IMG/VR virus record: IMGVR_UViG_3300005589_000095
Coordinates: 1 to 25,675 of that record
Origin: a virus
Length of the DNA stretch: 25,675 bases
Strand: one strand, 5' to 3'
The translations under genes and the position numbers were made by a program. Shown piece by piece: positions 2,755 through 25,111 of the stretch (its first letter is position 1; each line of letters starts with the position of its first letter). The notes below the pieces were generated by a model. That model ran no database searches. It was not told where the DNA came from and saw only the letters and a program-made list of their open reading frames with translations.

Positions 2755-4220
2755 CTCAAGGGCTTAACGCCCTCAAAAAGTACCCGTACCTTTCACTTTT
2801 TGAAAGTTACTGGAATTTTTTGGCGGCACGCCGGCAGGACGCTACCCTCTGCTGCGGTTATAGCTCTCCGATGCTCGTCAGCACCCCTATGCCCTTTCCG
2901 CCACGGTCACCATGCTCGCAAGGTGCCGCTGTGTGTCTGCGTTCCACACCGCAGCGTGCCATTAACTGAATCAGGGTTTGTGGCAGCAGGAGACCACCGA
3001 GACCGCTTTGTTCGCTTAAATGCCGGTAGCGAACCGACTGCGCCCTGCTTCTTGTCACTGACGCCTGCTCGTGAGCTCTTCAAAAGGCGCCGGCAGTAAC
3101 CCCAAACCGATGCAATCGCTTAGAGAGAACCCGCTACTTAACGCTACTCGCGGTCGTACCCCAGAACTCTTAGACCATAACAGAGCCAGCATTTCGCCCC
3201 GAAGGGCTTCTGGGTGCGTCTGGGCGCTTTTGCCTACACCTACGACGGTGCAGTTGCTTCGCGGGGTCTTTCTAAACAATCGTAAAGGTGTGGAAGGGCT
3301 GAGACTACACCCAACACTGGAGCCGCCTTTGAGACCGTACCCTTTCGGTTAATCTCGTGTCCACCCCGCCAAGGCAGGGTCCGTACTCCACGACAGCCAA
3401 TTTCTTTTACAGCGCTGGCGATAGCCCTGTTCTACCGAGCATCTCGAAGTTCGTCCTCTTACCCTGCGCAGCTAACGCCGAGTATTTGGGCTCCCCTCAA
3501 TCCCGTCGGACCTTGGAGGTCGTCTGGTAGGTCATTACCCGTAGGCTGACCGTTATGCCGCTTTTGCTCTGGCACCGACAGGCGTCTTTCCATTTTCGCA
3601 TTAACGAATTAATAGTTCGTCGCTAAGGGTGGACTCGAACCACCGACTGCTTGCTTTCAAGGCAAGAGCTCTACCAACTGAGCTACTAAGCTAAGCATAT
3701 CTACGACGAGCGCCTGCCTGTGCCTTCACTGGGTTGCCCCAGCAAAATAACACCCGACGTCTGTTTTCACCTGACGGCTACTCACGGTTCTGGCGACTCA
3801 CGGCGTTACCCGCATTCCGCATTTGCAACTGGTCTGGCGCCCTCGGCTATCAACCTTGAACCTCCAGTCCTACCCCTTACTCATCGCCAGTTCGCTGCTT
3901 TTGAGCGCACCTATGGCTTCTCACGCCATCGGAATCCAGCCAGAGTTACCCACCTTCATCCTTTTCAATGCAGCAGCTTCGCCGGTCCGGTCCGCCTTTT
4001 ACGAACCCCGTGCCCTGTAAGCACGCTGAGCGAGGCTTGCATGGTCTGACCACCTTGGTGGCGGGTACGTGTATGCCCGTATCCCTTTGACCGATATCAC
4101 TACCGGCTATCCACGCCATGCCGCGTCTGTCTCATCAGTTTTGCTGTTCCCGCGTGAGCCGAAGCCCGTTGGGTTCACCGCTTCGTCTGAGACGAATGTC
4201 GCTGCCGAAGCAGCGATTAA
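2755..4220 (-). ncRNA. Candidate giant structured non-coding RNA with an embedded tRNA-like gene
   Basis: About 1.5 kb between the structural operon and the gene ending at 4250 has no convincing reading frame on either strand, although genes elsewhere overlap. It starts just after a TATAAT promoter on the minus strand. Read leftward it is full of short stable hairpins: GCTGC-TTCG-GCAGC and TTCGTCT-AGACGAA near the start, CCACC-AA-GGTGG, ACC-GAAA-GGGT (a GNRA loop), GCCC-TTCG-GGGC, and CTTTCA-TGAAAG plus GGGC-GCCC near the end. A tRNA-like fold lies at 3621-3692. Phage giant RNAs of the GOLLD and ROOL classes are known to lie next to tRNA genes, and some GOLLD examples contain one; that makes GOLLD-like the first guess. 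Class assignment is inference, and I see no clear poly-U terminator, so the 3' end is approximate. Confidence 0.6.
3621..3692 (-). tRNA. tRNA-like gene, anticodon UGA (Ser-type), inside the giant RNA
   Basis: On the minus strand: D stem GCTC/GAGC with loop AGTTGGTA, anticodon stem CTTGC/GCAAG with loop CTTGAAA (anticodon TGA), a 5-base variable region CAGTC, and T arm GGTGG-TTCGAGT-CCACC. The acceptor strands AGCTTAG and CTTAGCG pair at five of seven positions, with mismatches at 1-72 and 5-68. No CCA is encoded (ACGA follows). UGA reads the Ser codon UCA, but bacterial tRNA-Ser carries a long variable arm, which this lacks. It may be a decayed tRNA, or a tRNA-shaped domain of the surrounding RNA. 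Confidence 0.7.
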
Positions 4221-5666: not shown

Positions 5667-5695
5667 AGAATAAGTGCAGTCACTGGACAATACAA
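5667..5695 (-). promoter_or_regulatory. Operator-type promoter of the HTH gene, leaderless
   Basis: Minus strand: -35 TTGTAT (5695-5690), 17-base spacer, -10 TATTCT (5672-5667). The spacer contains TCCAGTGACTGCA (5687-5675), a degenerate copy of the shared inverted repeat. Only 8 bases separate the -10 from the ATG at 5658. Confidence 0.6.
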
Positions 5696-11292: not shown

Positions 11293-11300
11293 ATAATCTA

Positions 11301-12411: not shown

Positions 12412-12413
12412 CG

Positions 12414-12746: not shown

Positions 12747-12756
12747 ATCGCCCTCC

Positions 12757-13371
12757 TTACCCTAAATAAATCAAACCAGAGCTGCTGGCTCGGTAGTTCT
12801 TCCAGCGGTTGTATGACTTTCCGTCAGAAAGCAGCTCTCGAATCTCTTCGTCGCTCTTCATCCGCGACTCGACCTCGCCGTCGACAAGCTCGACGTTGCT
12901 GCGATAGGTCCAGACCGCATCCGGATACTTGCCGTCTACCGCCTTGCCGCTGGGTGAAATTCCGATGCTGACTACGGTCTTATGGTAGCCGTACTTCTTC
13001 TCGGACATATAGAACACGACGCCTTCGGTGCCGACCGGCGCCTTGCGTCCCTTGACTACTTTGACCCGACTGCCTTTGACAATCCGCGACGCCTCGTTCC
13101 GGAAGTATGACTTCACTGGCTCGAACATCGCTTCTGCCGCCCACTTCTCTGCCTTGGCTTTGACCTCATCGGTCGCGTCGACCGTTGCGCTGCCGTCGCT
13201 CCAGAAGCGTGTGGTGGCATACTCGACGTTGGTGAGTTTCCCCTCCTCGTCGTCCCACACAATGGCGTAAAAGTCGGAGTCATCGTAGTAGTTGCGTTCG
13301 CGGGTCTCGAGGACCGCACCGACGTATGCCGGAGCGCTGTCGCCCTTACCGCTGTTGAATACTACTGGCAT
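12757..13371 (-). CDS. Hypothetical protein with KOW-like segment, 204 aa
   Basis: First gene of the operon behind the promoter at 13413-13441; ATG 13371 follows AAGGAGGCACT. Residues 97-119 (RIVKGSRVKVVKGRKAPVGT and on) have the spacing of a KOW motif, a small beta element common in RNA- or RNA-polymerase-binding proteins. The first 90 residues are mixed strand and helix, with YAIVWDDEEGKLTNVEY. There is no membrane segment. As the first early gene of its operon, a takeover role is conceivable, but only the KOW-like piece points to a function. Confidence 0.65.
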   Translation of the reverse strand: MPVVFNSGKGDSAPAYVGAVLETRERNYYDDSDFYAIVWDDEEGKLTNVEYATTRFWSDGSATVDATDEVKAKAEKWAAEAMFEPVKSYFRNEASRIVKGSRVKVVKGRKAPVGTEGVVFYMSEKKYGYHKTVVSIGISPSGKAVDGKYPDAVWTYRSNVELVDGEVESRMKSDEEIRELLSDGKSYNRWKNYRASSSGLIYLG

Positions 13372-13387
13372 AGTGCCTCCTTAATTA

Positions 13388-13405
13388 GTCGGTCCCATTA
13401 CCGAC
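13388..13405 (-). promoter_or_regulatory. 5'-terminal leader hairpin, RATGGG loop (copy 1)
   Basis: Minus strand GTCGGTAATGGGACCGAC: six-base stem with loop AATGGG. It begins near the expected transcription start (14 bases from the -10 to the loop ATG) and is followed by AAGGAGG. Reading from the loop ATG gives a 5-codon frame (MGPTN) ending in a TAA that merges with the ribosome site. Confidence 0.75.
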
Positions 13406-13412
13406 AAAACAC

Positions 13413-13441
13413 ATTGTATCAGTTCAGTGGCTGGATGTCAA
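13413..13441 (-). promoter_or_regulatory. Operator-type promoter, class with leader hairpin
   Basis: Minus strand: -35 TTGACA (13441-13436), 17-base spacer, -10 TACAAT (13418-13413). TCCAGCCACTGAA (13435-13423) follows the -35 directly. The TGA of the HD-domain gene upstream is inside the -35 box. Confidence 0.8.
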
Positions 13442-13887
13442 CCAGCGTTCGCTGAGTAGCGAGCAAGCAGCACTGGGTGCAGCTTCTCGTAGCGCTTCAT
13501 CAGGCTCGGCGGTGCGCCATCCCGACCCATGTTGTCCTCCACATCCGCCAGCTTCACTCGCACCGCAATCGGGTTCTCGAGCACTCGGCTGATGTACTCA
13601 CTGTGGGTCTCGTGGTTGCGCTTACTGATGGCGTCGACTGCCTCCGCGACCTCAACCCCGTAGGCGTTCATAACCTCCGCCAGCGTCAAGGGAGTGTCCT
13701 CCACCGTGTCGTGAAGGACCGCGACAATCATGCCGACGTAGTCGTATTCGTTCCGCGCCTTAACGCGGTTCATCACGCTCAGCGGATGCAGGATGTAGGG
13801 TCGCCCCATCTTGTCCTCATCGCCCTCGTGCATCGTGGTCGCCAGCATCACAGCTGGGGTGACCAAGCTCTTGTAATCATGGTTCAT
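13438..13887 (-). CDS. Small HD-domain (p)ppGpp-hydrolase-like protein (MESH1/SpoT-HD type)
   Basis: A 149-residue protein that matches the stand-alone HD domain of RelA/SpoT hydrolases: GRPYILHPLSV (H34), VAVLHDTVEDT (H59-D60, E63-D64), NPIAVRVKLADVEDNM (D115 and N119, in place of the usual KLADRLHNL). The metal-binding H, HD and D are all present, so hydrolysis of (p)ppGpp or related alarmones is plausible. No synthetase domain is present. A phage could use it to relieve the stringent response or to disarm alarmone-based defence; that is inference. ATG 13887 follows AAGGAGGAACC. It is the last gene of the operon begun at 15001, after a gap of about 200 bases with no gene. Confidence 0.85.
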   Translation of the reverse strand: MNHDYKSLVTPAVMLATTMHEGDEDKMGRPYILHPLSVMNRVKARNEYDYVGMIVAVLHDTVEDTPLTLAEVMNAYGVEVAEAVDAISKRNHETHSEYISRVLENPIAVRVKLADVEDNMGRDGAPPSLMKRYEKLHPVLLARYSANAG

Positions 13888-14085
13888 GGTTCCTCCTTAG
13901 TAGAATTAGTGCGGGGGTTGCAGCACTTTACCGGTTGTATGACGTCGCCCGCGCAGGGTAGAAGTAATCCTAAAAGCCCCTGCGACCGCACCGGTAGTAG
14001 CAACACTGCTTGGGCTATTTCGGGCGGAGTTCCGCCGCGATGATGCCCCCGCTCACCACCGCAAGGAGCGCGGTGTGGGCGCTTG

Positions 14086-14289
14086 TTAGTGCAATATGTT
14101 TTCGTCGGGGACCGGTCCCAGAAGAAGCTCTTCTGGCGGCGGCGGTCCGCCGTTCACGCCTATCCTTTCGCCGCATCGTGAGCACTCGAAGACCCTGCCT
14201 ACCATCGCGTCGGGATTTATCCGACCGAGGTACAGTTTGTTTCCGCACTCACAGATTATGTGCGGGCAGCGGTCCGATGCTAGCTTGAT
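14086..14289 (-). CDS. Zinc-ribbon protein with no standard start codon, about 67 aa
   Basis: The frame between 14289 and the TAA at 14086 encodes a clear double-Cys ribbon: C8-x-H10, C13-x-C15-G, and C36-x2-C39-G, then a Pro-rich stretch (GGPPPPEELLLGPVPDEN). The frame has no ATG, GTG or TTG before the first Cys pair. Upstream, AGGAGG lies 9 bases before an ATC codon at 14289, so initiation at ATC is the simplest reading. It overlaps nothing and follows the TAA of the gene before it by 1 base. A base error that removed an ATG is the alternative. Probably nucleic-acid or protein binding. Confidence 0.55.
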   Translation of the reverse strand: MKLASDRCPHIICECGNKLYLGRINPDAMVGRVFECSRCGERIGVNGGPPPPEELLLGPVPDENILH

Positions 14290-14290
14290 T

Positions 14291-14572
14291 TTACTTCTCC
14301 TCCTTTTCGTCGATGCTCACCTCGGCGGCGATGATTGCGATGCTTCGATTCAGGTACATCATCAGTCCGACCGATGAGTAGGCTGCGGAGCCCTCCCCAT
14401 CCGCCTTCGCGTACTTCTCGAAGACCGTGAATGCCTCGTCCGCGTCAGCTGGCGCCTCTGCGAACATCTTACAGTAGCCCATACTGTCGGCTACCGCTTT
14501 CTTCTCCGGCGACAGCGCCTCGTAAAGCTCGCCACCACCCATGTCTAAAACTTCGTATGCTGCTTCAGTCAT
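14291..14572 (-). CDS. Hypothetical acidic helical protein, 93 aa
   Basis: ATG 14572 follows AGAGGAGGTTGTT. The product is acidic and Ala/Glu-rich, with EALSPEKKAVADSMGYCKMF then ADADEAFTVFEKYAKADGEG. A moderately hydrophobic stretch near the end (SSVGLMMYLNRSIAIIAAEV) could be a buried helix rather than a membrane segment. It ends DEKEEK, and the bases encoding this tail double as the ribosome site of the next gene. Function unknown. Confidence 0.65.
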   Translation of the reverse strand: MTEAAYEVLDMGGGELYEALSPEKKAVADSMGYCKMFAEAPADADEAFTVFEKYAKADGEGSAAYSSVGLMMYLNRSIAIIAAEVSIDEKEEK

Positions 14573-14583
14573 AACAACCTCCT

Positions 14584-14784
14584 CTAGCTGACGGTCATCC
14601 CGTCGTTCTTAATACCATCCACAATGGCGCCGATGTATCGCGGCTCTACTGGGATGGACCTCTCGCTGGCGTAGTCGGGGATATCAATGTTCTCCTTCGC
14701 CCACGCCTTCGCTTTGTCACTCCACGGAACCAGAATCACAAGACTCATGCCCGCGGGGTTAATAATGAAATCAGGACCGTTCAT
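14584..14784 (-). CDS. Hypothetical protein, 66 aa
   Basis: I use ATG 14784, which overlaps the end of the previous gene and has AGAGAAGG just before it; an upstream in-frame ATG at 14820 would overlap by 50 bases. The protein begins MNGPDFIINPAGMSLVILVP, then WSDKAKAWAKENIDI and VEPRYIGAIVDGIKNDG. The strand-helix-strand pattern suggests a small alpha/beta fold. No motif is recognised. It is the second gene of the operon begun at 15001. Confidence 0.65.
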   Translation of the reverse strand: MNGPDFIINPAGMSLVILVPWSDKAKAWAKENIDIPDYASERSIPVEPRYIGAIVDGIKNDGMTVS

Positions 14785-15001
14785 ACGCCTTCTCTTTGAT
14801 GTTTGGGAAATATCGCTCAACAGTCTTCATCGCTACGTCGACTCGGTCCCGAGCCAGCCTCAAGTCCATCCTGACTGGCGCGTATGCTCCCTCTGGAAGC
14901 TCCGCTATCGACTTGCTATTCAACAACATATCGAGAGACTCCTTGTTGATTCTCAGGCTTTTGTAGCCAGAAACAATCAGGTCCTCGTCGTAGATACTCA
15001 C
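14771..15001 (-). CDS. Hypothetical protein, 76 aa
   Basis: The first gene after the operator-type promoter at 15043-15071 and its leader hairpin. GTG 15001 follows AAAGGAGGTGAT, and the tiny frame that starts in the hairpin loop stops (TGA) right at this GTG. The product (MSIYDEDLIVSGYKSLRINK, then MDLRLARDRVDVAMKTVERY) is charged and mostly helical in its second half. Function unknown. Confidence 0.65.
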   Translation of the reverse strand: MSIYDEDLIVSGYKSLRINKESLDMLLNSKSIAELPEGAYAPVRMDLRLARDRVDVAMKTVERYFPNIKEKAYERS

Positions 15002-15018
15002 ATCACCTCCTTTGTTTC

Positions 15019-15036
15019 GTCGGTCCCATTCCCGAC
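15019..15036 (-). promoter_or_regulatory. 5'-terminal leader hairpin, RATGGG loop (copy 2)
   Basis: Minus strand GTCGGGAATGGGACCGAC: stem GTCGG/CCGAC, loop-closing G-A mismatch, loop AATGGG. The loop ATG opens an 8-codon frame (MGPTKQRR) whose TGA lies directly before the GTG of the first gene. Spacing from the -10 to the loop ATG is 13 bases. Confidence 0.75.
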
Positions 15037-15042
15037 AAACAC

Positions 15043-15071
15043 AGTATAACAGTCCAACTGCTGGATGTCAA
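15043..15071 (-). promoter_or_regulatory. Operator-type promoter, class with leader hairpin
   Basis: Minus strand: -35 TTGACA (15071-15066), 17-base spacer, -10 TATACT (15048-15043). TCCAGCAGTTGGA (15065-15053) follows the -35 directly. The TGA of the upstream zinc-finger gene is inside the -35. Confidence 0.8.
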
Positions 15072-15244
15072 GAATGGCGTTCTTTGTACTCGTCCACCGC
15101 CTTGTCGAACTCCCGAGCCGCCCTATGAGGCTCGTCCCAGAGACCGTTCTCGGCAGCCCAGTTGTCGAGGTCGACAGGCATCCCGCAGTAGTGGCAATGC
15201 CCGTCGTTCTCGGCTACGTGATGGCAGCTGCGCCAGTTACGCAT
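15068..15244 (-). CDS. Small Cys/His zinc-finger-like protein, 58 aa
   Basis: I choose ATG 15244, which overlaps the previous stop (GCGTAA) and follows GAGGTGGAGG; a start further upstream would overlap the previous gene by more than 80 bases and add a low-complexity Arg/Trp-rich leader. Potential zinc ligands are C7-H8-H9 and H16-C17-H18-x-C20, in RSCHHVAENDGHCHYCGMP. The rest is acidic and helical (EFDKAVDEYKERHS). Unknown function; it may be a DNA- or protein-binding finger. Its TGA is part of the next operon's -35 box. Confidence 0.65.
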   Translation of the reverse strand: MRNWRSCHHVAENDGHCHYCGMPVDLDNWAAENGLWDEPHRAAREFDKAVDEYKERHS

Positions 15245-15572
15245 CCTCCACCTCGAGCGCCACCTTCTCCGCCATGTACCAGACCAGCAGGTTCTTGCGA
15301 CCGGTTGGGGTGTCGGCGTCATCGGCTCGGTTGAATCCGGCTATCATGGCGCTGGTGTTCTCGTACCCCAGCGACTCCGCCTCCTCCGACAGCGCCCCCA
15401 TTATCTCGACCTCGTACTTGTCGTACAGAGCGACAGTGTCGCTGTAGTAGGTGATGTACGGATAACCTCCATCCGCGCCGTGGCTGGCGATGTCTGACAG
15501 GCTGTCCTCCAGCTCTACCTTGAAAAACTCGGCTATCGAGTCATAGCCATCCCATGCCTTTGCTTCTGGCAT
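15237..15572 (-). CDS. Hypothetical acidic protein, 111 aa
   Basis: ATG 15572 shares one base with the preceding TAA and follows TAGGAGAGGTGTA. The product is acidic and helical: EFFKVELEDSLSDIASHGAD, then TYYSDTVALYDKYEVEIMG and LLVWYMAEKVALEVEDA. The pattern (DKYE-x2-I, then W-Y-x2-E-x-V-A near the end) resembles small early proteins common in phages of enteric and aquatic bacteria, but I cannot name the family. No transmembrane segment. Confidence 0.7.
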   Translation of the reverse strand: MPEAKAWDGYDSIAEFFKVELEDSLSDIASHGADGGYPYITYYSDTVALYDKYEVEIMGALSEEAESLGYENTSAMIAGFNRADDADTPTGRKNLLVWYMAEKVALEVEDA

Positions 15573-15790
15573 TACACCTCTCCTAGTTCGTAAAGAAATT
15601 CGTCAGCCAAGATGTAACCGAAGTGGTCAACGTAGCCGCTCGGGTCAGTCACATAGCCCTTGAACACAGCCTTTTTGCCAGACACCTTGCCCAGCTCTTT
15701 CTTGGCGTTAGCCTTCGCCTCCTTCAGGGTATCTCCGTACCCGTATACGTGGGGTCCGACCACGATAATTTTTGCCTTGTTTTCTGACAT
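15572..15790 (-). CDS. Small hypothetical protein, 72 aa, related in layout to the gene at 16657
   Basis: ATG 15790 follows AAGGAGGATAA. The sequence IIVVGPHVYGYGDTLKEAKA then NAKKELGKVSGKKAVFKGYV is a strand, a helix with EAKxxAKKEL, then a second strand. The gene at 16657-16848 has the same layout (a short strand, then YEAKKKAMHEL, then a strand), and such small beta-alpha-beta proteins are widespread in phages. The role is not known. It lies in the operon of the 16048 promoter. Confidence 0.65.
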   Translation of the reverse strand: MSENKAKIIVVGPHVYGYGDTLKEAKANAKKELGKVSGKKAVFKGYVTDPSGYVDHFGYILADEFLYELGEV

Positions 15791-16003
15791 TTATCCTCCT
15801 TCTGGTGGTTTTGGTTTGGGTCCCTTCCCGCTCTTGTAGGCGATGTAGTCGTCATACACTGCCTTGTTCTCGGGGCTTTCTTCGGATGCGGCTCGCAGCT
15901 CCTCGCTGTCCGCCTCGCCGGCTTTGTAGTGCCGGTGGTCGTCACTCATGTGATACCACCAGTCGTGCTTCTCAAGCCGGCTGTACAGTTCGATTGGTTT
16001 CAC
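15791..16003 (-). CDS. Hypothetical acidic protein, 70 aa
   Basis: The first gene of its operon. GTG 16003 follows CAGGAGGGTTCCAC. The product starts MKPIELYSRLEKHDWWYHMS, has an acidic middle (GEADSEELRAASEESPENKA), and ends Lys/Pro/Gly-rich (KSGKGPKPKPPEGG). The clustered His, Trp and Tyr near residues 13-26 are striking and may bind a partner or metal. Not recognised. Confidence 0.65.
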   Translation of the reverse strand: MKPIELYSRLEKHDWWYHMSDDHRHYKAGEADSEELRAASEESPENKAVYDDYIAYKSGKGPKPKPPEGG

Positions 16004-16020
16004 GTGGAACCCTCCTGTGT

Positions 16021-16040
16021 CACTGAGCCCATTCCCAGTG
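16021..16040 (-). promoter_or_regulatory. 5'-terminal leader hairpin, RATGGG loop (copy 3)
   Basis: Minus strand CACTGGGAATGGGCTCAGTG: stem CACTG/CAGTG plus a G-T and a G-C pair, loop AATGGG. The stem sequence is unrelated to copies 1 and 2 but still pairs. The loop ATG opens a 10-codon frame (MGSVTQEGST) whose TGA overlaps the GTG of the first gene. Confidence 0.7.
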
Positions 16041-16047
16041 CACAGCG

Positions 16048-16076
16048 ATGATACCAGTCCAGCCCTTGGATGTCAA
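16048..16076 (-). promoter_or_regulatory. Operator-type promoter, class with leader hairpin
   Basis: Minus strand: -35 TTGACA (16076-16071), 17-base spacer, -10 TATCAT (16053-16048). TCCAAGGGCTGGA (16070-16058) follows the -35 directly. It faces away from the plus-strand promoter at 16462 across about 385 bases. Confidence 0.75.
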
Positions 16077-16157
16077 TAGCCGCAACCTTGAAGCCGGCTT
16101 TAATGTGTAAGGTTAAAGTTGGGTTGAAGGTGACAGCGCAGCAGGAAGCCGCTATCC

Positions 16158-16228
16158 TGAAAAGACAAAGCCCGCTGTGAAAGCGGGCTTCGACCGAGCG
16201 AAAGTTTGCAGACCGACCTCGGGTTTAG
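16158..16228 (-). ncRNA. Candidate small RNA, about 70 nt, ending in an intrinsic terminator
   Basis: A possible promoter (16235-16262) points leftward and would start an RNA near 16228. The RNA ends at AAGCCCGC-TTTCACA-GCGGGCTT (stem within 16190-16168) followed by TGTCTTTT, a proper terminator for this strand. No frame of note lies between. It may regulate the divergent early operons, but no target is evident. Confidence 0.4.
16168..16190 (-). terminator. Intrinsic terminator (leftward)
   Basis: Perfect 8-base stem AAGCCCGC/GCGGGCTT with 7-base loop, followed on the minus strand by TGTCTTTT. On the plus strand it is followed by CGACC, so it works leftward only. Since no gene to its right is on the minus strand until 20802, it implies a short leftward transcript from 16190-16461. 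Confidence 0.6.
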
Positions 16229-16234
16229 GGTTCC

Positions 16235-16262
16235 ATTATCCCATAATCCGCCTTCGATTCAA
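16235..16262 (-). promoter_or_regulatory. Possible promoter of the small RNA
   Basis: Minus strand: TTGAAT (16262-16257), 16-base spacer, GATAAT (16240-16235). It lacks the TCCAG operator. The match is moderate, supported mainly by the terminator about 70 bases downstream. Confidence 0.35.
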
Positions 16263-16270
16263 ACACTTTT

Positions 16271-16369
16271 CTCGGTCCCAGTTCGGGGCAGAGGCTGCGT
16301 AATAAACAGGCGCAGAGACCGGAGTCGACATCCGCCATGCCCCCCTCGGGAGTCTCTAGCCGAAGAGGG
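16271..16369. other. Structured non-coding segment of the divergent region
   Basis: The 385-base gap 16077-16461 holds no believable gene. Within it CTCGGTC (16271-16277) can pair with GACCGGAG (16317-16324). That stem encloses CCC-agttc-GGGG (16277-16288) and CTGCG/CGCAG (16295-16315), so a three-way fold is possible. Next to it CCCTC/GAGGG (16343-16347 with 16365-16369) forms another hairpin. It could be part of a replication origin or of an RNA; the strand is unclear. Confidence 0.4.
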
Positions 16370-16461
16370 ACAGCAGTCGCTACTGTATACGACACTAGGG
16401 AGCACCACCGCTGATGCTGCGGTTGGTCGCGTGTGCCCGATGGTTATTGACTTTCAGAGAC

Positions 16462-16490
16462 TTGACATCCAGTGGCTGAACCCTTATACT
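16462..16490 (+). promoter_or_regulatory. Operator-type promoter, class with leader hairpin
   Basis: TTGACA (16462-16467), 17-base spacer, TATACT (16485-16490). TCCAGTGGCTGAA (16468-16480) follows the -35 directly. It starts the rightward early operon. Confidence 0.8.
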
Positions 16491-16497
16491 CTGGGTT

Positions 16498-16515
16498 GTG
16501 GGTAATGGGACCCGC
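16498..16515 (+). promoter_or_regulatory. 5'-terminal leader hairpin, RATGGG loop (copy 4)
   Basis: GTGGGTAATGGGACCCGC: stem GTGGGT/ACCCGC with one G-T pair, extended by T16497-A16516, loop AATGGG. Here the loop ATG (16505) is in frame with the first gene's ATG (16535) and no stop intervenes, so it may be an alternative start that adds 10 residues. Confidence 0.75.
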
Positions 16516-16534
16516 ACTGGAAAAGGAGGTTGAT

Positions 16535-16660
16535 ATGGCTGGTTTGCTTTCAGCTCTAATCATCGCGTCGGTTCTCGCTTCTCTCTACCTTGAGCTGGAC
16601 GAATCGTCGCTTTCATACAACTCGGCACTGCTTGCCGACGCCGCGGGGTCCTTAGCATGA
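16535..16660 (+). CDS. Single-helix membrane peptide, 41 aa
   Basis: ATG 16535 follows AAAGGAGGTTGAT. The peptide has a hydrophobic N-terminal helix (LLSALIIASVLASLYLEL) and a short polar tail (DESSLSYNSALLADAAGSLA), so it should insert in the inner membrane. The in-frame ATG in the leader hairpin loop could start a version with an extra MGPALEKEVD. Its TGA overlaps the next ATG. As the first early gene it might be a host-interfering or superinfection membrane peptide; this is inference. Confidence 0.65.
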   Translation: MAGLLSALIIASVLASLYLELDESSLSYNSALLADAAGSLA

Positions 16661-16848
16661 ACGGATACATCGCGCACTACGGAGGGAAGAAGGCTGAGAT
16701 TTACGCCCCCTCACTCTACGAAGCCAAGAAGAAAGCCATGCACGAGCTGTCTGTCCCACTGACAAAAATGGGACTGCTCTCAGTGGCGCTCGCTGAAGTC
16801 GACGGCGAGCCTGTTATTCACGACGGCGCTTCGATAGCGCCTTACTAG
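16657..16848 (+). CDS. Small hypothetical phage protein, 63 aa
   Basis: ATG 16657 overlaps the previous stop (ATGA). The start MNGYIAHYGGKKAEIYAPSL followed by YEAKKKAMHELSVP is typical of a small protein common in phages of proteobacteria (Y-I-x-H-Y-x-G-K, then an EAxxxA helix, then a strand). Function unknown. The gene at 15572-15790 on the other strand has the same layout, so the two may be distant paralogues in separate early operons. Confidence 0.75.
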   Translation: MNGYIAHYGGKKAEIYAPSLYEAKKKAMHELSVPLTKMGLLSVALAEVDGEPVIHDGASIAPY

Positions 16849-16859
16849 GAGGAGACACC

Positions 16860-16982
16860 ATGACCCCAATGTCTATGAGCGAATATCTTATGTGGGAGCG
16901 GGTTGGGATTCGCCCCGCGGACGCCGAAGATGCCGGCATCCCTGACAATGTCGCCGGCGATAGCGAAGAGGAGGAATCGTGA
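16860..16982 (+). CDS. Small acidic hypothetical protein, 40 aa
   Basis: ATG 16860 follows TAGGAGGAGACACC. The product runs MTPMSMSEYLMWERVGIRPA and ends in an acidic tail (DSEEEES). It is short, but the strong ribosome site and the stop overlapping the next GTG make it likely to be translated. Its acidic tail is encoded by GA-rich DNA that also serves as the next gene's ribosome site. Function unknown. Confidence 0.6.
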   Translation: MTPMSMSEYLMWERVGIRPADAEDAGIPDNVAGDSEEEES

Positions 16983-17149
16983 AGGATATCGGAATAGACC
17001 CTCTGGGCGTGATTAACTCGAATGAGTGGAGGCTCGAGAACAACCGCAAGAGAGCCATGAGGGCTGCAGAAACCATCGAGAAGCTGAAGGAAGAGCTGAG
17101 GCTTCGCATCATTAACGACAAGAAAGGAGGAGTTGGAATTGCGTCTTAA
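16979..17149 (+). CDS. Small basic helical protein, 56 aa
   Basis: GTG 16979 overlaps the previous TGA (GTGA) and follows GAGGAGGAATC. The middle is a basic amphipathic helix: WRLENNRKRAMRAAETIEKL and KEELRLRIIN. This suggests a coiled-coil or nucleic-acid-associated peptide. It overlaps the start of the next gene by about 11 bases. No family is recognised. Confidence 0.6.
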   Translation: MKDIGIDPLGVINSNEWRLENNRKRAMRAAETIEKLKEELRLRIINDKKGGVGIAS

Positions 17150-17420
17150 CTATCTGAAAGAGAACGGACTGGTTCTCGCCATCTTCGACATTCCGGCGGA
17201 CTATGCCGGCGGTGTTGTGCTGGCGAAGCTGGACGGCAAGTTTGTGGTCTGGAGCTTTAACGCCGAAGGCAGCCTGTTCTGGGGCAAATACTTCCCAGTG
17301 AGCGAGGGCTCGAACGGCGAGGCTGAGCGAGCAGAGGCGGAGGAAGCCTTCAAGAAGAAGGTCGCAGACAACCTGCCCTACGGTCGACTGGGCGTCTACG
17401 AATTACCGAAGGAGGCGTAG
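17139..17420 (+). CDS. Hypothetical protein, 93 aa, TTG start
   Basis: The start is probably TTG 17139, 8 bases after AGGAGG; the in-frame TTG at 17133 is too close to that site. The product begins MRLNYLKENGLVLAIFDIPA, then VVLAKLDGKFVVWSFNAEGS and SLFWGKYFPVSEGS, a run of short beta strands, and ends with a charged helix (AERAEAEEAFKKKVADNLPY). No catalytic motif is visible. It lies mid-operon in the small early genes, and the next gene starts two bases after its stop. Confidence 0.65.
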   Translation: MRLNYLKENGLVLAIFDIPADYAGGVVLAKLDGKFVVWSFNAEGSLFWGKYFPVSEGSNGEAERAEAEEAFKKKVADNLPYGRLGVYELPKEA

Positions 17421-17421
17421 C

Positions 17422-17868
17422 GTGGACTACCTTTACAAGCTACTAGCCAAGCCCACGACCGTTAATGTCGGGCTGAGCGCCGACACTGTTGACATCCACC
17501 TCGCTGAGTTCGTCTTCAAGCCACTGTCGCCCTACGGGTTTCGTGGTGAGGAGAACGAGAAGGTCAACCGGCGCATCATGGCTCGGAAGTACCTGCCAAC
17601 GAAACGAGCTTGGGACCGAGCCGGAATTAACCCTAACGGAGCCTTCTTTGCTACGGAGCTGAAGGACGGAGCACTCGTCTACAAGCTGAACCGCAGCGAA
17701 CCGATGTACTACGAAGAGTCCGACCTCGGCAGGAAGCGAGCGCCGATAGTTGGCGCCCTAATGATTGCGGCAAGCGGGACCATGCGAATCTACAACCCGT
17801 CCACTGTCGACTACAACGACTACAAGGCAGCCATCAAGGAGAACCCCAGCTATGTCAAAGCCGCTTAA
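17422..17868 (+). CDS. Hypothetical protein, 148 aa
   Basis: GTG 17422 follows AAGGAGGCGTAGC. The sequence MDYLYKLLAKPTTVNVGLSA, then VDIHLAEFVFKPLSPYGFRG and MARKYLPTKRAWDRAGINPN, has mixed helix and strand with several Tyr and Pro. The last part (IVGALMIAASGTMRIYN) is mildly hydrophobic but too short and polar for a confident membrane helix. Family unknown. The last bases overlap the next gene by 17. Confidence 0.65.
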   Translation: MDYLYKLLAKPTTVNVGLSADTVDIHLAEFVFKPLSPYGFRGEENEKVNRRIMARKYLPTKRAWDRAGINPNGAFFATELKDGALVYKLNRSEPMYYEESDLGRKRAPIVGALMIAASGTMRIYNPSTVDYNDYKAAIKENPSYVKAA

Positions 17869-17983
17869 GCCAGACGTCAAGGCAATCCTCCTGCGGAACC
17901 TCAAGAGGCGCCGCAAGGAAGGAATCTCGGAGGCTCGCAACGAGCGCTACCGCAAAGCCTTTATCAACGCCAACCCAAAGTAG
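17852..17983 (+). CDS. Small very basic protein, 43 aa
   Basis: ATG 17852 with AAGGAG 10 bases upstream, overlapping the preceding gene. The product MSKPLKPDVKAILLRNLKRR then RKEGISEARNERYRKAFINA is strongly basic and helical, suggesting nucleic-acid binding. Its TAG stop is directly followed by the -35 TTGACG of the next operon, so the gene border and promoter abut. Confidence 0.6.
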   Translation: MSKPLKPDVKAILLRNLKRRRKEGISEARNERYRKAFINANPK

Positions 17984-18012
17984 TTGACGTCCAGCCTCTG
18001 GACTGGTAAGAT
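17984..18012 (+). promoter_or_regulatory. Operator-type promoter, class with leader hairpin
   Basis: TTGACG (17984-17989), 17-base spacer, TAAGAT (18007-18012). TCCAGCCTCTGGA (17990-18002) is a perfect copy of the inverted repeat and follows the -35 directly. Confidence 0.8.
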
Positions 18013-18018
18013 GACTGT

Positions 18019-18036
18019 GCTGGTAATGGGACCAGC
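18019..18036 (+). promoter_or_regulatory. 5'-terminal leader hairpin, RATGGG loop (copy 5)
   Basis: GCTGGTAATGGGACCAGC: stem GCTGGT/ACCAGC, loop AATGGG, starting 7 bases after the -10, that is at the expected first base of the RNA. The loop ATG opens an 8-codon frame (MGPAKRRS) whose TAG overlaps the GTG of the first gene. Confidence 0.8.
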
Positions 18037-18051
18037 CAAAAGGAGAAGCTA

Positions 18052-18144
18052 GTGAGCAACAACTATATCGACATCGAAAACGCGAGGCGGCATCGCCGTA
18101 GGCGGCGCCAAGAAGGCAGTAACACTACTAAAGAAAGGAGGTGA
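18052..18144 (+). CDS. Arginine-rich micro-protein, 30 aa
   Basis: GTG 18052 follows AAAAGGAGAAGCTA. The peptide is MSNNYIDIENARRHRRRRRQ followed by EGSNTTKERR. The Arg-rich block resembles RNA-binding arginine-rich motifs, such as that of lambda N, which binds a leader hairpin; no claim of homology is made. The frame's stop overlaps the ribosome site of the next gene. It is short, but its place as first gene after a strong promoter supports it. Confidence 0.55.
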   Translation: MSNNYIDIENARRHRRRRRQEGSNTTKERR

Positions 18145-18147
18145 ATA

Positions 18148-18423
18148 GTGGCACGATTTTACGCAAGCATTAAAGGCAGCCGCGGCGAAGTATCGCGGCT
18201 CGGCGGCAAGTCGAGCGGAGCTACGGCTGTCGCTGCAGGCTGGGGTGGCGCCATCAAGGTCGAGCTCTCGGTCCGAGAGTGGGAAGGCAAGGAGGTCGAC
18301 TGGTACACGGTCTGGATGACGCCATGGAAAGGCAGTGGCGGCAGCTCGGTCAAACTGACCGAAGGCGTCCTCGATGCAGTCGAGCGCGACATCTACTGTA
18401 AGGGCGGAATGCCCACCTGCTAA
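18148..18423 (+). CDS. Hypothetical early phage protein, 91 aa
   Basis: GTG 18148 follows AAAGGAGGTGAATA. The product MARFYASIKGSRGEVSRLGG, then ATAVAAGWGGAIKVELSV and VDWYTVWMTPWKGSGGSS, is a small beta-rich protein of a kind common in phages (MARFY-x-S-I-x-G-x-RGE-x-x-R-x-G near the start). No function is known to me. It carries one Cys pair near the end (DIYCKGGMPTC). Confidence 0.7.
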   Translation: MARFYASIKGSRGEVSRLGGKSSGATAVAAGWGGAIKVELSVREWEGKEVDWYTVWMTPWKGSGGSSVKLTEGVLDAVERDIYCKGGMPTC

Positions 18424-18434
18424 AAGGAGGAACC

Positions 18435-18881
18435 ATGGGACACAAACTACACAATGCACTGGAGCCGGCGGGCGGCAAGCACAACCGCTACTGCGGTCCA
18501 GCTGCGATAGCCGCCATCACCGGCATGACGACCGGCGAGGCGGCAGCCGAAGCCAGAGCAGTGACGGGGAAGCCGTCCATCCGAGGGATGTACTCGTTCG
18601 ACCTCTTGCACGTACTGCTTCGCAACGGGTTCTCGTCGAAGGGCACCGAAAGTTACCGGCGAGGCAAAGGACCGACGCTGAAGCGCTGGCTGGCGGACCA
18701 CTACGACGGCACCGCCCTGTGCGTGGTGCGGACCACCACCCACTTCTGGGCGATGAGCAACGGCGAGTTCGTCGACACCTACTTCCGGATGCCCAGCCCA
18801 CTCGATAAGGTGCACTCACCAAGGGCTCGGGTGATGGACGTCTTCTATCTGGAGCCACCAGCAGAGGAGGTGGCGGCATGA
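18435..18881 (+). CDS. Papain-like/C39-like cysteine peptidase-fold protein, 148 aa
   Basis: ATG 18435 follows AAAAGGAGGAACC. The sequence has the layout of a minimal papain-like (C39/transglutaminase-like) fold: C20 at the start of a helix in NRYCGPAAIAAITGM, then DLLHVLLRNGF, then TTTHFWAMSNGEFVDTYF with H103 and D114. The order Cys, His, Asp and the YCGPAA helix fit a catalytic triad. It could cut or modify a host protein early in infection, or be a deamidase. No signal peptide is present, so it acts in the cytoplasm. The fold call is by eye. Confidence 0.7.
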   Translation: MGHKLHNALEPAGGKHNRYCGPAAIAAITGMTTGEAAAEARAVTGKPSIRGMYSFDLLHVLLRNGFSSKGTESYRRGKGPTLKRWLADHYDGTALCVVRTTTHFWAMSNGEFVDTYFRMPSPLDKVHSPRARVMDVFYLEPPAEEVAA

Positions 18882-19219
18882 TGGAGACTCCTCCGAAGCC
18901 GGTGGTGCTGGACTGGTACTGCCCGTCCACACCACCCACGCTAACCCTGCCGGTTGACCCAGAGCGGCTCAACCTGCGAAGCCCGCTGCTGCAAATACTG
19001 CTGACGACGAACAGCGGCGGCAAGGACACCTACTGCACCACGGGCTACTACAACTGCCGAGAGGGCGTCTTCCTGATACGCGGGTTCGAGGACTACTGGG
19101 ACCCACTGCCGATGGAGCACATGGTTGCATGGGCATACGCCCCGACCTTCCGAGCCCCAAGCAAGGACCGGATTAAGCCGGTATCAATACCTCTCCGCCC
19201 CTTGACATCCAGTGGCTGA
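18878..19219 (+). CDS. Hypothetical protein, 113 aa, containing the next promoter in its 3' end
   Basis: ATG 18878 overlaps the previous stop (ATGATG). The product is Pro-rich at its N-terminus (PPKPVVLDWYCPSTPPTLTL); later it has GGKDTYCTTGYYNCREGVFL and GFEDYWDPLPMEHMVAWAY. The W-x-PLP element recalls small phage proteins ending in a WxPLP motif, but the similarity is loose. The last codons (PLTSSG) are encoded by the -35 and the operator repeat of the next promoter, so coding and control sequences overlap. Confidence 0.65.
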   Translation: MMETPPKPVVLDWYCPSTPPTLTLPVDPERLNLRSPLLQILLTTNSGGKDTYCTTGYYNCREGVFLIRGFEDYWDPLPMEHMVAWAYAPTFRAPSKDRIKPVSIPLRPLTSSG

Positions 19220-19230
19220 ACCCCTATACT
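19202..19230 (+). promoter_or_regulatory. Operator-type promoter, class with leader hairpin
   Basis: TTGACA (19202-19207), 17-base spacer, TATACT (19225-19230). TCCAGTGGCTGAA (19208-19220) follows the -35 directly. The first half of the promoter is inside the preceding gene. Confidence 0.8.
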
Positions 19231-19236
19231 AACCAT

Positions 19237-19254
19237 GTCAGCGATGGGGCTGAC
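19237..19254 (+). promoter_or_regulatory. 5'-terminal leader hairpin, RATGGG loop (copy 6)
   Basis: GTCAGCGATGGGGCTGAC: stem GTCAGC/GCTGAC with a C-G closing pair in place of T-A, loop GATGGG. It begins 7 bases after the -10. The loop ATG opens an 11-codon frame whose TAA overlaps the ATG of the first gene. Confidence 0.8.
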
Positions 19255-19271
19255 TCAACGAAGGAGGTTTT

Positions 19272-19469
19272 ATGGCTAAGTATCCAGACATCAATGTGAA
19301 GCTGGTCGGAGAGAGCGGCAACGCCTTCTCCATCATCGGTCGGGTTCGCAAGGCAATGAAGCGGGGTGGCGTCGACCCCGCAGAGATTGAGAAATACAGC
19401 GACGAAGCGATGAGCGGCGACTACGACAACGTGTTGTCGACCACCATGAAGTACGTCGAGGTGTCCTGA
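19272..19469 (+). CDS. Conserved small phage protein, 65 aa
   Basis: ATG 19272 follows AAGGAGGTTTT. The sequence VKLVGESGNAFSIIGRVRKA then MKRGGVDPAEIEKYSDEAMS and SGDYDNVLSTTMKYVEV matches a small family seen in many phages and mobile elements (V-x-L-x-G-x-x-GNAF-x-I-x-G-x-V at the start, SGDYD-x-L-x-x-T at the end). Its function is not established. The conserved pattern supports the start. Its stop overlaps the next start (TGATG). Confidence 0.85.
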   Translation: MAKYPDINVKLVGESGNAFSIIGRVRKAMKRGGVDPAEIEKYSDEAMSGDYDNVLSTTMKYVEVS

Positions 19470-19699
19470 TGGACAAGTGGGTAATCTGCAAATACTGCAA
19501 GGGCGACGGCAGCGAGCTGCGCGGCGAAGCCGGCGACAAAGTTCGGGTCAGCTGCAAGCCATGCCGCGGCACCGGCAAGATGCGGAAGCTCTCTGAGGAA
19601 GAGGCAGCCGACATCATGGAAGCCCGCCGGACCTACTGCGCCGAAATGGGCATCGCCCGAGGCACCGCAGACTACGACTACATTATGAAAAACGGATAG
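19469..19699 (+). CDS. DnaJ-type zinc-finger protein, 76 aa
   Basis: ATG 19469 shares its A with the preceding TGA. Two CxxCxGxG motifs are present: C7-x2-C10-KGDG and C29-x2-C32-RGTG, spaced as in one zinc-binding unit of the DnaJ central domain. No J domain is present. A basic or acidic helix follows (KLSEEEAADIMEARRTYC). Stand-alone versions of this finger occur in phages and may bind unfolded proteins, RNA or a host factor. The zinc-finger call is firm; the role is unknown. Confidence 0.8.
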   Translation: MDKWVICKYCKGDGSELRGEAGDKVRVSCKPCRGTGKMRKLSEEEAADIMEARRTYCAEMGIARGTADYDYIMKNG

Positions 19700-19707
19700 G
19701 AGGTGAT

Positions 19708-20061
19708 ATGAAATATCGTGTTAATGGGCTGCGCTACTTCTCCGAAGAGGACTCCTACCTAGAGGGTTGCCTTCCGGAAACTGGGCGGGTCGCAGACTAC
19801 AACATCGAGTTTACCGGCGACTCTCCGGAGGAGGTGAAGAGCAGCATCATGGACCACTTCTTGGTCGACAATGATGCCATTGATATCGACTCTTGCGGCG
19901 ACGACCCAAGCCGAATCGACATCGCCCGAATGGAAGACGAAAGCGGGCTTTTAGCCAGCGAGGAAGAGCTGGAAGCCTTTAAGAAAGGTGAAATGAAACT
20001 TTACTACGCGGTCTACACCGGTTTCCTTGAGAAGGTCGATACCGCCAACTGGGACAACTAA
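19708..20061 (+). CDS. Hypothetical acidic phage protein, 117 aa
   Basis: ATG 19708 follows TAGGAGGTGAT. The product is strongly acidic: LRYFSEEDSYLEGCLPETGR, DYNIEFTGDSPEEVKSSIMD, then NDAIDIDSCGDDPSRIDIAR. The N-terminal strand-helix part, with SPEEVxxxI, resembles small proteins common in early regions of phages. The acidity might suggest DNA mimicry or binding to a basic partner, but this is speculative. No catalytic motif is seen. Confidence 0.7.
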   Translation: MKYRVNGLRYFSEEDSYLEGCLPETGRVADYNIEFTGDSPEEVKSSIMDHFLVDNDAIDIDSCGDDPSRIDIARMEDESGLLASEEELEAFKKGEMKLYYAVYTGFLEKVDTANWDN

Positions 20062-20070
20062 GGAGGAGTA

Positions 20071-20388: not shown

Positions 20389-20399
20389 AAGGAGGATAT

Positions 20400-20741: not shown

Positions 20742-20753
20742 TATCCAGATTCT

Positions 20754-24343: not shown

Positions 24344-25086
24344 GTGCACCCGCAACAATCTACACCGAAATCACCCAGAGCAAGAACGCTGTAGCCATTC
24401 TTGCCGAAGTAAAGGAGCTGCTGTCTCAGGTCGAGAAGCTCGGCACCATTGAGACCGAAGAACAGGCTGCTGCCGTCGGAGAGTTCCGCCAGCAGATTTC
24501 AGTCCGGAAGCGCGAGCTGGACAACGAGCGCAAGGAGATGGTTGCCCCCGCCCTTCAGATTCAGCGCAGCCTGAACGACAAGTTCAAGGAGCCGCTAGCC
24601 GAGCTGGACCGCATCAAGGGCTCATGCGACAAGCTGCTTCTGGAATGGACCCGCGAGCAGGAGCGCATCGCTCGTGAAGCCGAGCAGGCTCGCCTGAAGA
24701 AAGAGCAGGAAGAGCGCGAGGCTGAAGAAGCCCGTATCGAAGCTGAACGTCTGGCGCAGCTGGCGGAGACTGAAGACGAGGTGCTCGAGGCTCAGGCTGC
24801 GGTTGAAGAGTCAATCGAGCGGACCGACTCGGTCCGCCAGCAGGTGGTGCCGAAGGCTCCCGAGAAGACTGGTCAGGTTACCGGCACGCAAGGCGCCAAA
24901 GTCTCCAAGGTCGACAACTGGAAGTACCGCATCGTCGATATCAACGCGGTGCCGGAGGAGTTCCTGCGCCCGCCCGAAGAGCGCGTGAACAAGCTGGCTC
25001 TGAACAAGGTGGCGAAGAGCCAGAAGGGAGAGGCGGAGGTTGCCGGCATCGAGTTTTACAACGAGCCACACATCTCCTCACGTTGA
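24340..25086 (+). CDS. Coiled-coil protein of the recombination operon, 248 aa
   Basis: ATG 24340 overlaps the previous TGA. Residues about 30-165 form a long charged coiled coil (REQERIAREAEQARLKKEQE and AEEARIEAERLAQLAETED, for instance). A small C-terminal domain follows, around WKYRIVDINAVPEEFLRP (from about 193) and ending GIEFYNEPHISSR. This pairing of a coil and a W-x-Y-x-I-x-D-x-x-x-VP-x-E-x-L domain is common next to RecT and exonuclease genes in phages; its function is unclear, perhaps a recombination accessory or a host RecBCD-type inhibitor. Its TGA lies inside the next gene's -35 box. Confidence 0.8.
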   Translation: MSAPATIYTEITQSKNAVAILAEVKELLSQVEKLGTIETEEQAAAVGEFRQQISVRKRELDNERKEMVAPALQIQRSLNDKFKEPLAELDRIKGSCDKLLLEWTREQERIAREAEQARLKKEQEEREAEEARIEAERLAQLAETEDEVLEAQAAVEESIERTDSVRQQVVPKAPEKTGQVTGTQGAKVSKVDNWKYRIVDINAVPEEFLRPPEERVNKLALNKVAKSQKGEAEVAGIEFYNEPHISSR

Positions 25087-25111
25087 CAGTCCAGCCATTG
25101 GATGTTATAAT
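25083..25111 (+). promoter_or_regulatory. Operator-type promoter of the SprT-like gene, leaderless
   Basis: TTGACA (25083-25088), 17-base spacer, TATAAT (25106-25111). TCCAGCCATTGGA (25090-25102) is a copy of the shared repeat. Only 6 bases (CAGCCC) separate the -10 from the ATG at 25118, so the mRNA should start at or near the ATG. Confidence 0.8.

What the first reader, a model, noticed from the sequence alone, without database searches (positions are those of the whole stretch)
13388..19254. Six mRNAs begin with a hairpin of changing stem and fixed (A/G)ATGGG loop
Copies at 13388, 15019, 16021, 16498, 18019 and 19237 have stems GTCGGT, GTCGG, CACTG, GTGGGT, GCTGGT and GTCAGC, each paired by compensating bases, while the hexaloop stays AATGGG or GATGGG. 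The loop ATG is always 13-15 bases after the -10, so the hairpin is the 5' end of the RNA, and an AGGAGG-type site follows closely. Covariation plus a fixed loop argues for a selected RNA element, for example a binding site for a phage or host protein or a 5' cap-like stabiliser. I know of no described family with this pattern.
Basis: partly seen in the sequence, partly recalled or inferred. Interest (0 to 1): 0.92.

Follow-up and report, generated by a model that had tools for sequence, protein, structure and literature searches.

The report
Repeated 5' hairpin on phage mRNAs
Six messenger RNAs of an uncultured bacterial virus are predicted to begin with the same small RNA hairpin, whose stem letters change in matched pairs while its six-letter loop stays nearly fixed, which points to a selected RNA tag that probably protects the messages and may be read by a partner not yet known.

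Summary
Six sigma-70-like promoters in a 25.7-kb phage contig are each followed, at the predicted +1, by a 5-7 bp hairpin with loop AATGGG (five) or GATGGG (one), then a Shine-Dalgarno site 4-8 nt on. Six of seven stem positions show two-sided change. Pairwise identity is 94% in the loop, 51-56% in the stem arms, 32% in the discriminator.

Missed context: all six promoters carry one palindrome, TCCAR-N3-YTGRA, a probable operator. The same palindrome sits at a promoter before a GOLLD-like giant RNA and, once weaker, at two promoters that look leaderless and have no such hairpin.

Pattern scans of IMG/VR found full RATGGG hairpins in this layout in four other records and one family of six contigs, plus a weaker case. 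One of the records has three promoter copies with loops GATGGG, GATACG and GAGAGG, so loop and ATG are not universal. Rfam has no match at the hairpins.

Most likely this is a 5'-terminal stem-loop that blocks 5'-end-dependent mRNA decay with the ribosome site outside it. The fixed loop suggests an added recognition step; a 30-aa arginine-rich ORF behind copy five is a candidate partner. Nothing was measured.

The parts
13388..13405 (-). hairpin 1, GTCGGT-AATGGG-ACCGAC, predicted at +1
   Evidence: 30.0 bits
13413..13441 (-). promoter 1, TTGACA-17-TACAAT, palindrome TCCAGCCACTGAA in spacer
12757..13371 (-). ORF of 204 aa behind hairpin 1; residues 9-68 resemble Rhodococcus, Caulobacter and Streptomyces phage proteins
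15019..15036 (-). hairpin 2, GTCGGG-AATGGG-ACCGAC, five pairs plus G.A mismatch at the loop
   Evidence: 27.1 bits
15043..15071 (-). promoter 2, TTGACA-17-TATACT, palindrome TCCAGCAGTTGGA
16021..16040 (-). hairpin 3, CACTGGG-AATGGG-CTCAGTG, seven pairs with one G.U
   Evidence: 25.4 bits
16048..16076 (-). promoter 3, TTGACA-17-TATCAT, palindrome TCCAAGGGCTGGA
16462..16490 (+). promoter 4, TTGACA-17-TATACT, palindrome TCCAGTGGCTGAA
16497..16516 (+). hairpin 4, TGTGGGT-AATGGG-ACCCGCA
   Evidence: 27.5 bits
17984..18012 (+). promoter 5, TTGACG-17-TAAGAT (9 of 12 consensus bases), palindrome TCCAGCCTCTGGA (perfect)
18019..18036 (+). hairpin 5, GCTGGT-AATGGG-ACCAGC
   Evidence: 28.4 bits
18052..18144 (+). 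30-aa ORF directly behind hairpin 5, MSNNYIDIENARRHRRRRRQEGSNTTKERR; arginine-rich; candidate RNA binder, untested
19202..19230 (+). promoter 6, TTGACA-17-TATACT, palindrome TCCAGTGGCTGAA
19237..19254 (+). hairpin 6, GTCAGC-GATGGG-GCTGAC
   Evidence: 25.8 bits
4226..4253 (-). promoter with the same palindrome (TCCAGCCACTGGA, perfect), 16-nt spacer, TATAAT; upstream of the GOLLD-like RNA
4200..4215 (-). hairpin CGCTGC-TTCG-GCAGCG near the 5' end of that transcript, read by eye; different loop; the computed fold of 50 nt prefers another pairing
3296..3760 (-). GOLLD-like RNA, conserved part, with tRNA-Ser (3619-3692) inside it
   Evidence: (RF02032, 55.9 bits, E 1.9e-13, below gathering score 150)
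25083..25111 (+). same-palindrome promoter TTGACA-17-TATAAT; ATG at 25118 is the 7th base after the -10, so the mRNA looks leaderless; SprT-like gene
5667..5695 (-). weaker promoter TTGTAT-17-TATTCT with TCCAGTGACTGCA (one base off the palindrome); ATG at 5658, 9th base after the -10, near-leaderless; 85-aa ORF

Best explanation
The six hairpins are one repeated leader module of a phage regulon. Host sigma-70 RNA polymerase starts at six promoters that share one operator, and each RNA then begins at or within about a base of a 5-7 bp stem closed by an (A/G)AUGGG hexaloop, with the ribosome site 4-8 nt downstream. The terminal stem leaves almost no single-stranded 5' end, so RppH-type and RNase E/J-type enzymes that need one are held off and the short messages last longer, while the Shine-Dalgarno site lies outside the hairpin. 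The fixed loop is best explained by an added constraint: recognition by a phage or host RNA-binding factor, or a special loop fold. Shown: sequence, shared palindrome, covariation, loop conservation, layout. Inferred: start sites, RNA folding in the cell, the operator's repressor, protection, the loop's partner.
For: Two-sided changes at six of seven stem positions, and 0 of 500 shuffles at the observed covariation score. Loop identity 0.944 against 0.322 in the discriminator and 0.35-0.43 behind the hairpin, so recent duplication does not explain it. In folds of the predicted RNAs +1 to +3 are paired (unpaired probability at most 0.06) in 3 of 6, and all but the first base in 2 more. Two same-palindrome promoters that look leaderless lack the hairpin, so it goes with a leader and not with the operator. 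A review states that RppH and RNase E rely on single-stranded 5' ends and that 5' structures stabilise mRNA (PMC3997798, passages). Same promoter-hairpin-SD layout in other viral records, which share no detectable DNA similarity with the window as far as held.
Against: No transcription start, RNA structure or decay was measured. The host is unknown, so RppH or RNase E is assumed. A plain protector needs no fixed loop. For copy 6 the computed fold of 49 nt prefers another structure with +1 to +3 open. In 5 of 6 folds at least one of the six SD bases is more often paired than not, copy 5 being the exception. Z-scores of the whole leaders are modest, -1.1 to -2.3. One terminase relative, L095 (36% over 506 aa), has the same -35 and palindrome before an SD and ATG but no such hairpin, so a leader under this kind of promoter may lack it; that single site may also be chance.
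Confidence: 0.5

Rival explanations
1. The loop is a binding site for a phage RNA-binding protein or arginine-rich peptide that represses or boosts translation of the whole set at once (an RNA regulon), with protection a side effect.
For: Fixed loop over a changing stem is the usual mark of loop recognition. A 30-aa ORF directly behind hairpin 5 has the stretch NARRHRRRRRQEG, reminiscent of the P22 N peptide NAKTRRHERRRKLAIERDT that binds a boxB hairpin (sequence from PMC11480772 passages).
Against: No binding data. Basic short ORFs turn up in other sequences by the same loose filter. The hairpins of other records would need their own or a host partner. Two of three loops in G017 differ.
Confidence: 0.25
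2. The hairpin is an antitermination signal like lambda boxB or the HK022 put sites, letting polymerase from these promoters pass terminators.
For: It lies at the start of six transcription units, and an arginine-rich ORF is at hand. Terminator-like sites are more frequent than in shuffles (20 against 12.0, sd 3.5, in 10000-25675), and some lie in the path, the best being 16788-16810 plus, 8 pairs, inside an ORF.
Against: The strongest predicted terminator, 16192-16166 minus (11 pairs, T-rich tail), lies upstream of promoter 3 and outside the path of these transcripts; those in the path are weaker or have broken T runs. I noticed no boxA-like stretch by eye, and the SD follows within 8 nt.
Confidence: 0.08
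3. The ATG in the loop starts a tiny upstream reading frame that couples to or competes with the gene.
For: All six loops hold ATG; five of the six frames close after 5-11 codons near the gene start, one is in frame with its gene.
Against: Frames end at different places and the loop ATG has no room for a ribosome site upstream. Loops GATACG and GAGAGG in G017 lack ATG. It does not explain the stem.
Confidence: 0.06
4. The element acts in DNA (second operator or pause signal downstream of +1) and the stem is incidental.
For: The loop lies at a nearly fixed distance, 12-14 nt, from the -10.
Against: Half-sites differ between copies while pairing is kept, which a double-stranded DNA site would not need.
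Confidence: 0.06
5. The six copies are recent duplicates and the pattern is inherited, not selected.
For: Promoters 4 and 6 share 22 identical bases from the -35 on, and the 3' arms of copies 1 and 2 match.
Against: Bases beside the hairpin are near random identity, 0.32-0.43, while the loop is 0.944; changes in the stem are paired.
Confidence: 0.05

Closest known systems
5'-terminal stabilising stem-loops of enterobacterial mRNAs (papA; ompA recalled)
   Same: A stem at or near +1 in front of the ribosome site; 5' structure hinders RppH and RNase E (PMC3997798, passages and reference titles).
   Different: As I recall they are single leaders without a fixed loop; here six leaders with one operator share a fixed hexaloop over changing stems.
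Phage lambda/P22 boxB hairpin with N peptide
   Same: Short phage RNA hairpin with a conserved loop; a small arginine-rich ORF is present.
   Different: Loop, place and neighbours differ; no boxA-like stretch noticed, only weak terminator-like sites in the path.
CsrA/RsmA binding hairpins (recalled)
   Same: Hexaloop in a leader near the SD; GGA spans loop and stem in copies 1, 4 and 5 and is unpaired in copy 2.
   Different: Recalled core is GGA in the loop; copies 3 and 6 have no GGA in the hairpin.
SAS/ESAS elements of cluster K mycobacteriophages (search listing and starts of abstracts only)
   Same: Repeated, phage-wide element before small genes, with an inverted repeat (details recalled).
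   Different: Recalled as conserved sequence next to the start codon; here the stem sequence is free and the hairpin sits at +1.
PhotoRC-I RNA (RF01716)
   Same: Below-threshold match (22.3 bits, gathering 45) of the GOLLD promoter-leader, not of the six hairpins.
   Different: The six hairpins do not match it.

Membership tests
5'-terminal stabilising stem-loop | stem begins at or within about 4 nt of the RNA 5' end | tested here: inconclusive
   The stem begins at the 7th or 8th base after the -10 in all six, where +1 is expected; start sites not mapped.
5'-terminal stabilising stem-loop | ribosome site left accessible | tested here: inconclusive
   The hairpin does not include the SD, but in 5 of 6 folds at least one SD base is more often paired than not.
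5'-terminal stabilising stem-loop | longer mRNA half-life that depends on the stem | not testable with these tools
   Needs RNA measurements in a host.
Any Rfam 15 family | score at or above the family's gathering cut-off at the hairpins | tested here: not met
   Whole window: only tRNA reaches gathering. 13000-19500 at E up to 5: one weak match, at 16158-16252, off the hairpins.
nut/boxB antitermination site | boxA next to boxB, terminators in the transcript's path | tested here: inconclusive
   Only weaker terminator-like sites in the path; no boxA-like stretch noticed by eye; no systematic boxA scan.
N4 virion RNA polymerase promoter hairpin (recalled) | hairpin upstream of +1 in the promoter, no sigma-70 hexamers needed | tested here: not met
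   Hairpins lie downstream of complete -35/-10 pairs with 17-nt spacers.
CsrA/RsmA site (recalled) | GGA in the loop, in every copy | tested here: not met
   GGA is absent from the hairpins of copies 3 and 6; in copies 1, 4 and 5 its A is in the stem; only in copy 2 is it unpaired.
GOLLD RNA (for the neighbouring ncRNA, not the hairpin) | match to RF02032 at gathering score | tested here: not met
   55.9 bits, full model length 1-416, E 1.9e-13, below gathering 150; so GOLLD-like.

The most novel reading that the evidence does not exclude
A phage marks the leader-bearing mRNAs of one repressor regulon with a 5'-terminal RNA tag whose identity lies only in an (A/G)AUGGG hexaloop; a phage-coded factor, possibly the 30-aa arginine-rich product of 18052-18144, reads the tag to protect or translate phage messages selectively, a cap-like self-mark for viral mRNA, and other phages have the same or similar tags.
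Probability: 0.2. Interest if true: 0.82.

Novelty: new variant of a known kind. Interest (0 to 1): 0.52.

Why it matters
If right, it is a compact natural leader that couples a strong repressible promoter, a protected 5' end and a ribosome site, repeated with independent stems, so the phage would gain uniform, stable expression without long direct repeats that could recombine. If the loop is also read by a partner, it would be a cap-like way to tell viral from host mRNA in bacteria. Because stem and loop can be changed apart, both claims are directly testable in reporters.

Tried and rejected
Close phage relatives: no megablast match among 50,697 phage records; the terminase has only matches under 60% identity there. 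The 68 terminase-relative loci other than the twin record have no match to the model of the six below E 1.

Same operator elsewhere: the IMG/VR scan returned 23 stretches, the twin record and 22 others; by eye none of the 22 has the hairpin. Most look like chance, but L095 has the promoter, an SD and ATG, and a terminase relative, with no hairpin; only one exact site in its 45.6-kb record. The first such scan gave the twin record and two others without hairpin. The genome scan gave one hit, L116, with SD and ATG but no hairpin. 0 of 297 genomes of that hit's phylum matched the hairpin pattern, and 0 its control; that phylum has no known tie to this phage.

Control loop: the reversed loop gave 3 hits, 0 of 3 with six pairs, against 4 of 8 for RATGGG outside the twin record. 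That contrast alone is not significant (Fisher p 0.24).

Repressor candidate: the 85-aa ORF at 5658-5401 gave no Pfam match and a poor single-sequence fold (pLDDT 60.5), so no helix-turn-helix is claimed. The 43-aa basic ORF 17852-17983 has no phage relative at E up to 1; the 30-aa ORF was not searched.

Literature: no paper on this element in the listings of my searches, which cover open-licence full texts only.
Full report
What the window is. It is a 25,675-base IMG/VR virus record. It matches part of a 61,329-base record, IMGVR_UViG_3300010430_000035 (here G001), with 3 differences in 25,675 bases, none in a hairpin. It has a terminase large subunit (phrog_2 and phrog_5902), RecT and a YqaJ-type nuclease, a RusA-like resolvase and many small ORFs. 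Nothing in 50,697 phage records matches at DNA level. The host is unknown.

The observation. Each lies behind a sigma-70-like promoter with a 17-nt spacer; five match 11 of 12 consensus bases, promoter 5 matches 9. Six or seven bases separate the -10 from the stem, and the loop ATG starts 13-15 nt after the -10. Two details change: copy 2 has five pairs and a G.A mismatch at the loop, and copy 3 has seven pairs with one G.U.

More than chance. On the six copies 90.5% of 42 cells are standard pairs, six of seven positions have at least one two-sided change (the outermost one is unpaired in three copies), and the covariation score is 0.781 against 0.347 in shuffles, 0 of 500 reaching it; sliding the partner destroys the pairing. 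0 of 200,000 within-arm shuffles reached the 35 of 36 inner pairs seen; 2 of 720 re-pairings of arms did, the true one and the swap of two identical arms. Pairwise identity is 0.944 in the loop, 0.70 in the -10, 0.556 and 0.511 in the stem arms, 0.322 in the discriminator and 0.35-0.43 behind the hairpin. The loop is conserved on a background that has drifted, and the stem is kept as pairing, not as sequence. That argues against a double-stranded DNA site.

All six promoters hold TCCAR-N3-YTGRA between -35 and -10, an imperfect to perfect palindrome of TCCAG-N3-CTGGA. It reads like one operator for one repressor, which I could not identify. In the 61-kb record 13 sites fit TCCAG-N3-CTGGA with at most one mismatch: nine are at the promoters described here and four (window 11293, 10853, 8319 and one outside the window) are not at a promoter that I recognise. 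One of the nine is the promoter at 4253-4226 minus, before a GOLLD-like RNA (RF02032, 55.9 bits, E 1.9e-13, full model length, but below the gathering score of 150) with a tRNA-Ser inside. [quoted passage not shown] That transcript also has, by eye, a hairpin near its 5' end with a UUCG loop, although the computed fold of its first 50 nt prefers another pairing. Two others, 25083-25111 plus and the weaker 5695-5667 minus, put the ATG 7 and 9 bases after the -10, so those mRNAs look leaderless, and they have no hairpin. The hairpin thus goes with a leader and not with the operator.

Elsewhere. A pattern free of the operator (-10, G-Y-N-R stem, RATGGG, SD) hit the twin record and three others, L091, L092 and L093; all three have full stems of 7-10 pairs. 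A second pattern added L118 (7 pairs) and four hits without a full stem, L117 and L119-L121. The reversed-loop control hit three records, none with six pairs; 4 of 8 against 0 of 3 is not significant by itself (Fisher p 0.24). Looser patterns gave 35 and 17 stretches, the twin record among each. Without the twin, 50 hits merged to 36 distinct ones, of which five have six or more pairs (L091, L092, L093, L175 and a family of six contigs around L148), where 0.7-1.2 are expected (P about 0.001-0.009); all five have a start codon behind the SD, against 17 of 31 of the rest. L175 has a poor -10. Because these scans fixed the loop beforehand, they show that such leaders exist elsewhere, not that RATGGG is preferred over other loops. 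The records around L091, L092, L093, L118, L148 and L175, as far as I held them, have no DNA match to the window; the only protein matches at E 1e-3 are a RecT-region frame (29%, the record of L118) and one at the HD-domain gene (30%, the record of L093). So they are at most distant kin.

Another viral record with several copies. The record of L091 (G017) has three promoter hairpins with almost the same stem, loops GATGGG, GATACG and GAGAGG, a different, looser palindrome upstream (GCACA...TGTGC type by eye; only one of the three fits the exact form searched) and the same SD layout. There the stem is fixed and the loop moves, the reverse of our phage. So the common part is a 5'-terminal stem with a hexaloop that starts with purine-A and ends in G, and the ATG is dispensable there. 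Across 14 copies from all sources 93.9% of 98 cells pair and six of seven positions covary; eight of those 14 were picked because they pair, so this count leans towards the structure. In 68 terminase-relative loci the model of the six has no match below E 1.

A case against. L095, one of the 22 other hits of the operator pattern, encodes a terminase relative (36% over 506 aa) and has TTGACATCCAATCCCTGAAC, a -10, an SD and an ATG in order, but no hairpin of this kind. It has one exact site in 45.6 kb, so it may be chance; if real, the promoter type can exist without the hairpin.

Known families. Rfam has no match at the hairpins. The paper searches listed nothing with this element. A review supports the known principle that RppH and RNase E need single-stranded 5' ends (PMC3997798, passages).

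Mechanism. I take the module to be a protected leader: +1 falls in or beside the stem, so few or no 5' bases are free, while the SD lies outside it. In folds of the predicted RNAs the first three bases are paired in copies 1, 2 and 5, all but the first in copies 3 and 4, but not in copy 6, where another structure competes; in 5 of 6 folds part of the SD is more often paired than not. Protection alone does not need a fixed loop. The loop asks for a reader or a special fold. Directly behind hairpin 5 lies a 30-aa ORF with NARRHRRRRRQEG, which resembles the P22 N peptide that binds boxB (sequence in PMC11480772, passages). This is a lead only: the stretch is short and of low complexity, and the same loose filter finds basic ORFs in other sequences. 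Antitermination is less likely: the strongest terminator of the region (16192-16166 minus) lies outside the path of these transcripts, although weaker terminator-like sites lie in it, the best at 16788-16810 plus. A reading frame from the loop ATG ends at different places in the six.

Verdict. A real, selected RNA element of a known general kind (5'-terminal stem-loop) in an unusual form: repeated through one apparent regulon with free stems and a nearly fixed hexaloop. The function is inferred.

Noticed in passing
window 4253-2720, minus strand: A roughly 1.5-kb stretch without an assigned gene on this strand holds a GOLLD-like RNA with a tRNA-Ser inside, under a promoter with the same palindrome as the six hairpin promoters; this would put a GOLLD RNA in a phage regulon.
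   Followed up: partly
window 25083-25118 plus and 5695-5658 minus: Two same-palindrome promoters (the second weaker) whose ATG is 7 and 9 bases after the -10: apparent leaderless mRNAs, one for a SprT-like protein (PF10263, E 4.4e-06).
   Followed up: partly
window 17852-17983 and 18052-18144 plus: Two tiny basic ORFs (43 and 30 aa) on either side of promoter 5 both hold an arginine run followed by EG (RRRKEG, RRRRQEG); they may be related.
   Followed up: partly
window 12757-13371 minus: Residues 9-68 of the 204-aa ORF resemble proteins of Rhodococcus, Caulobacter and Streptomyces phages (49-62% identity in the rows shown, Burkholderia phages in the tally); no Pfam match at E up to 0.01.
   Followed up: no
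L092 7749-7772 plus: A second hairpin of 9 pairs with loop AATGGG, directly before GGAGAGGAGG and an ATG; I saw no obvious promoter.
   Followed up: no
L148, L151, L152, L159, L165, L167: Six short IMG/VR contigs share a leader TATAGT-GAAA-CTGTGC-AATGGG-GCACGG before an ATG, with two versions of the upstream sequence.
   Followed up: no
L095 1240 minus: A terminase relative with the same -35 and palindrome before an SD and ATG but no hairpin.
   Followed up: partly
window 4201-4257 minus: Below-threshold similarity of the GOLLD promoter-leader to PhotoRC-I (22.3 bits, gathering 45).
   Followed up: partly
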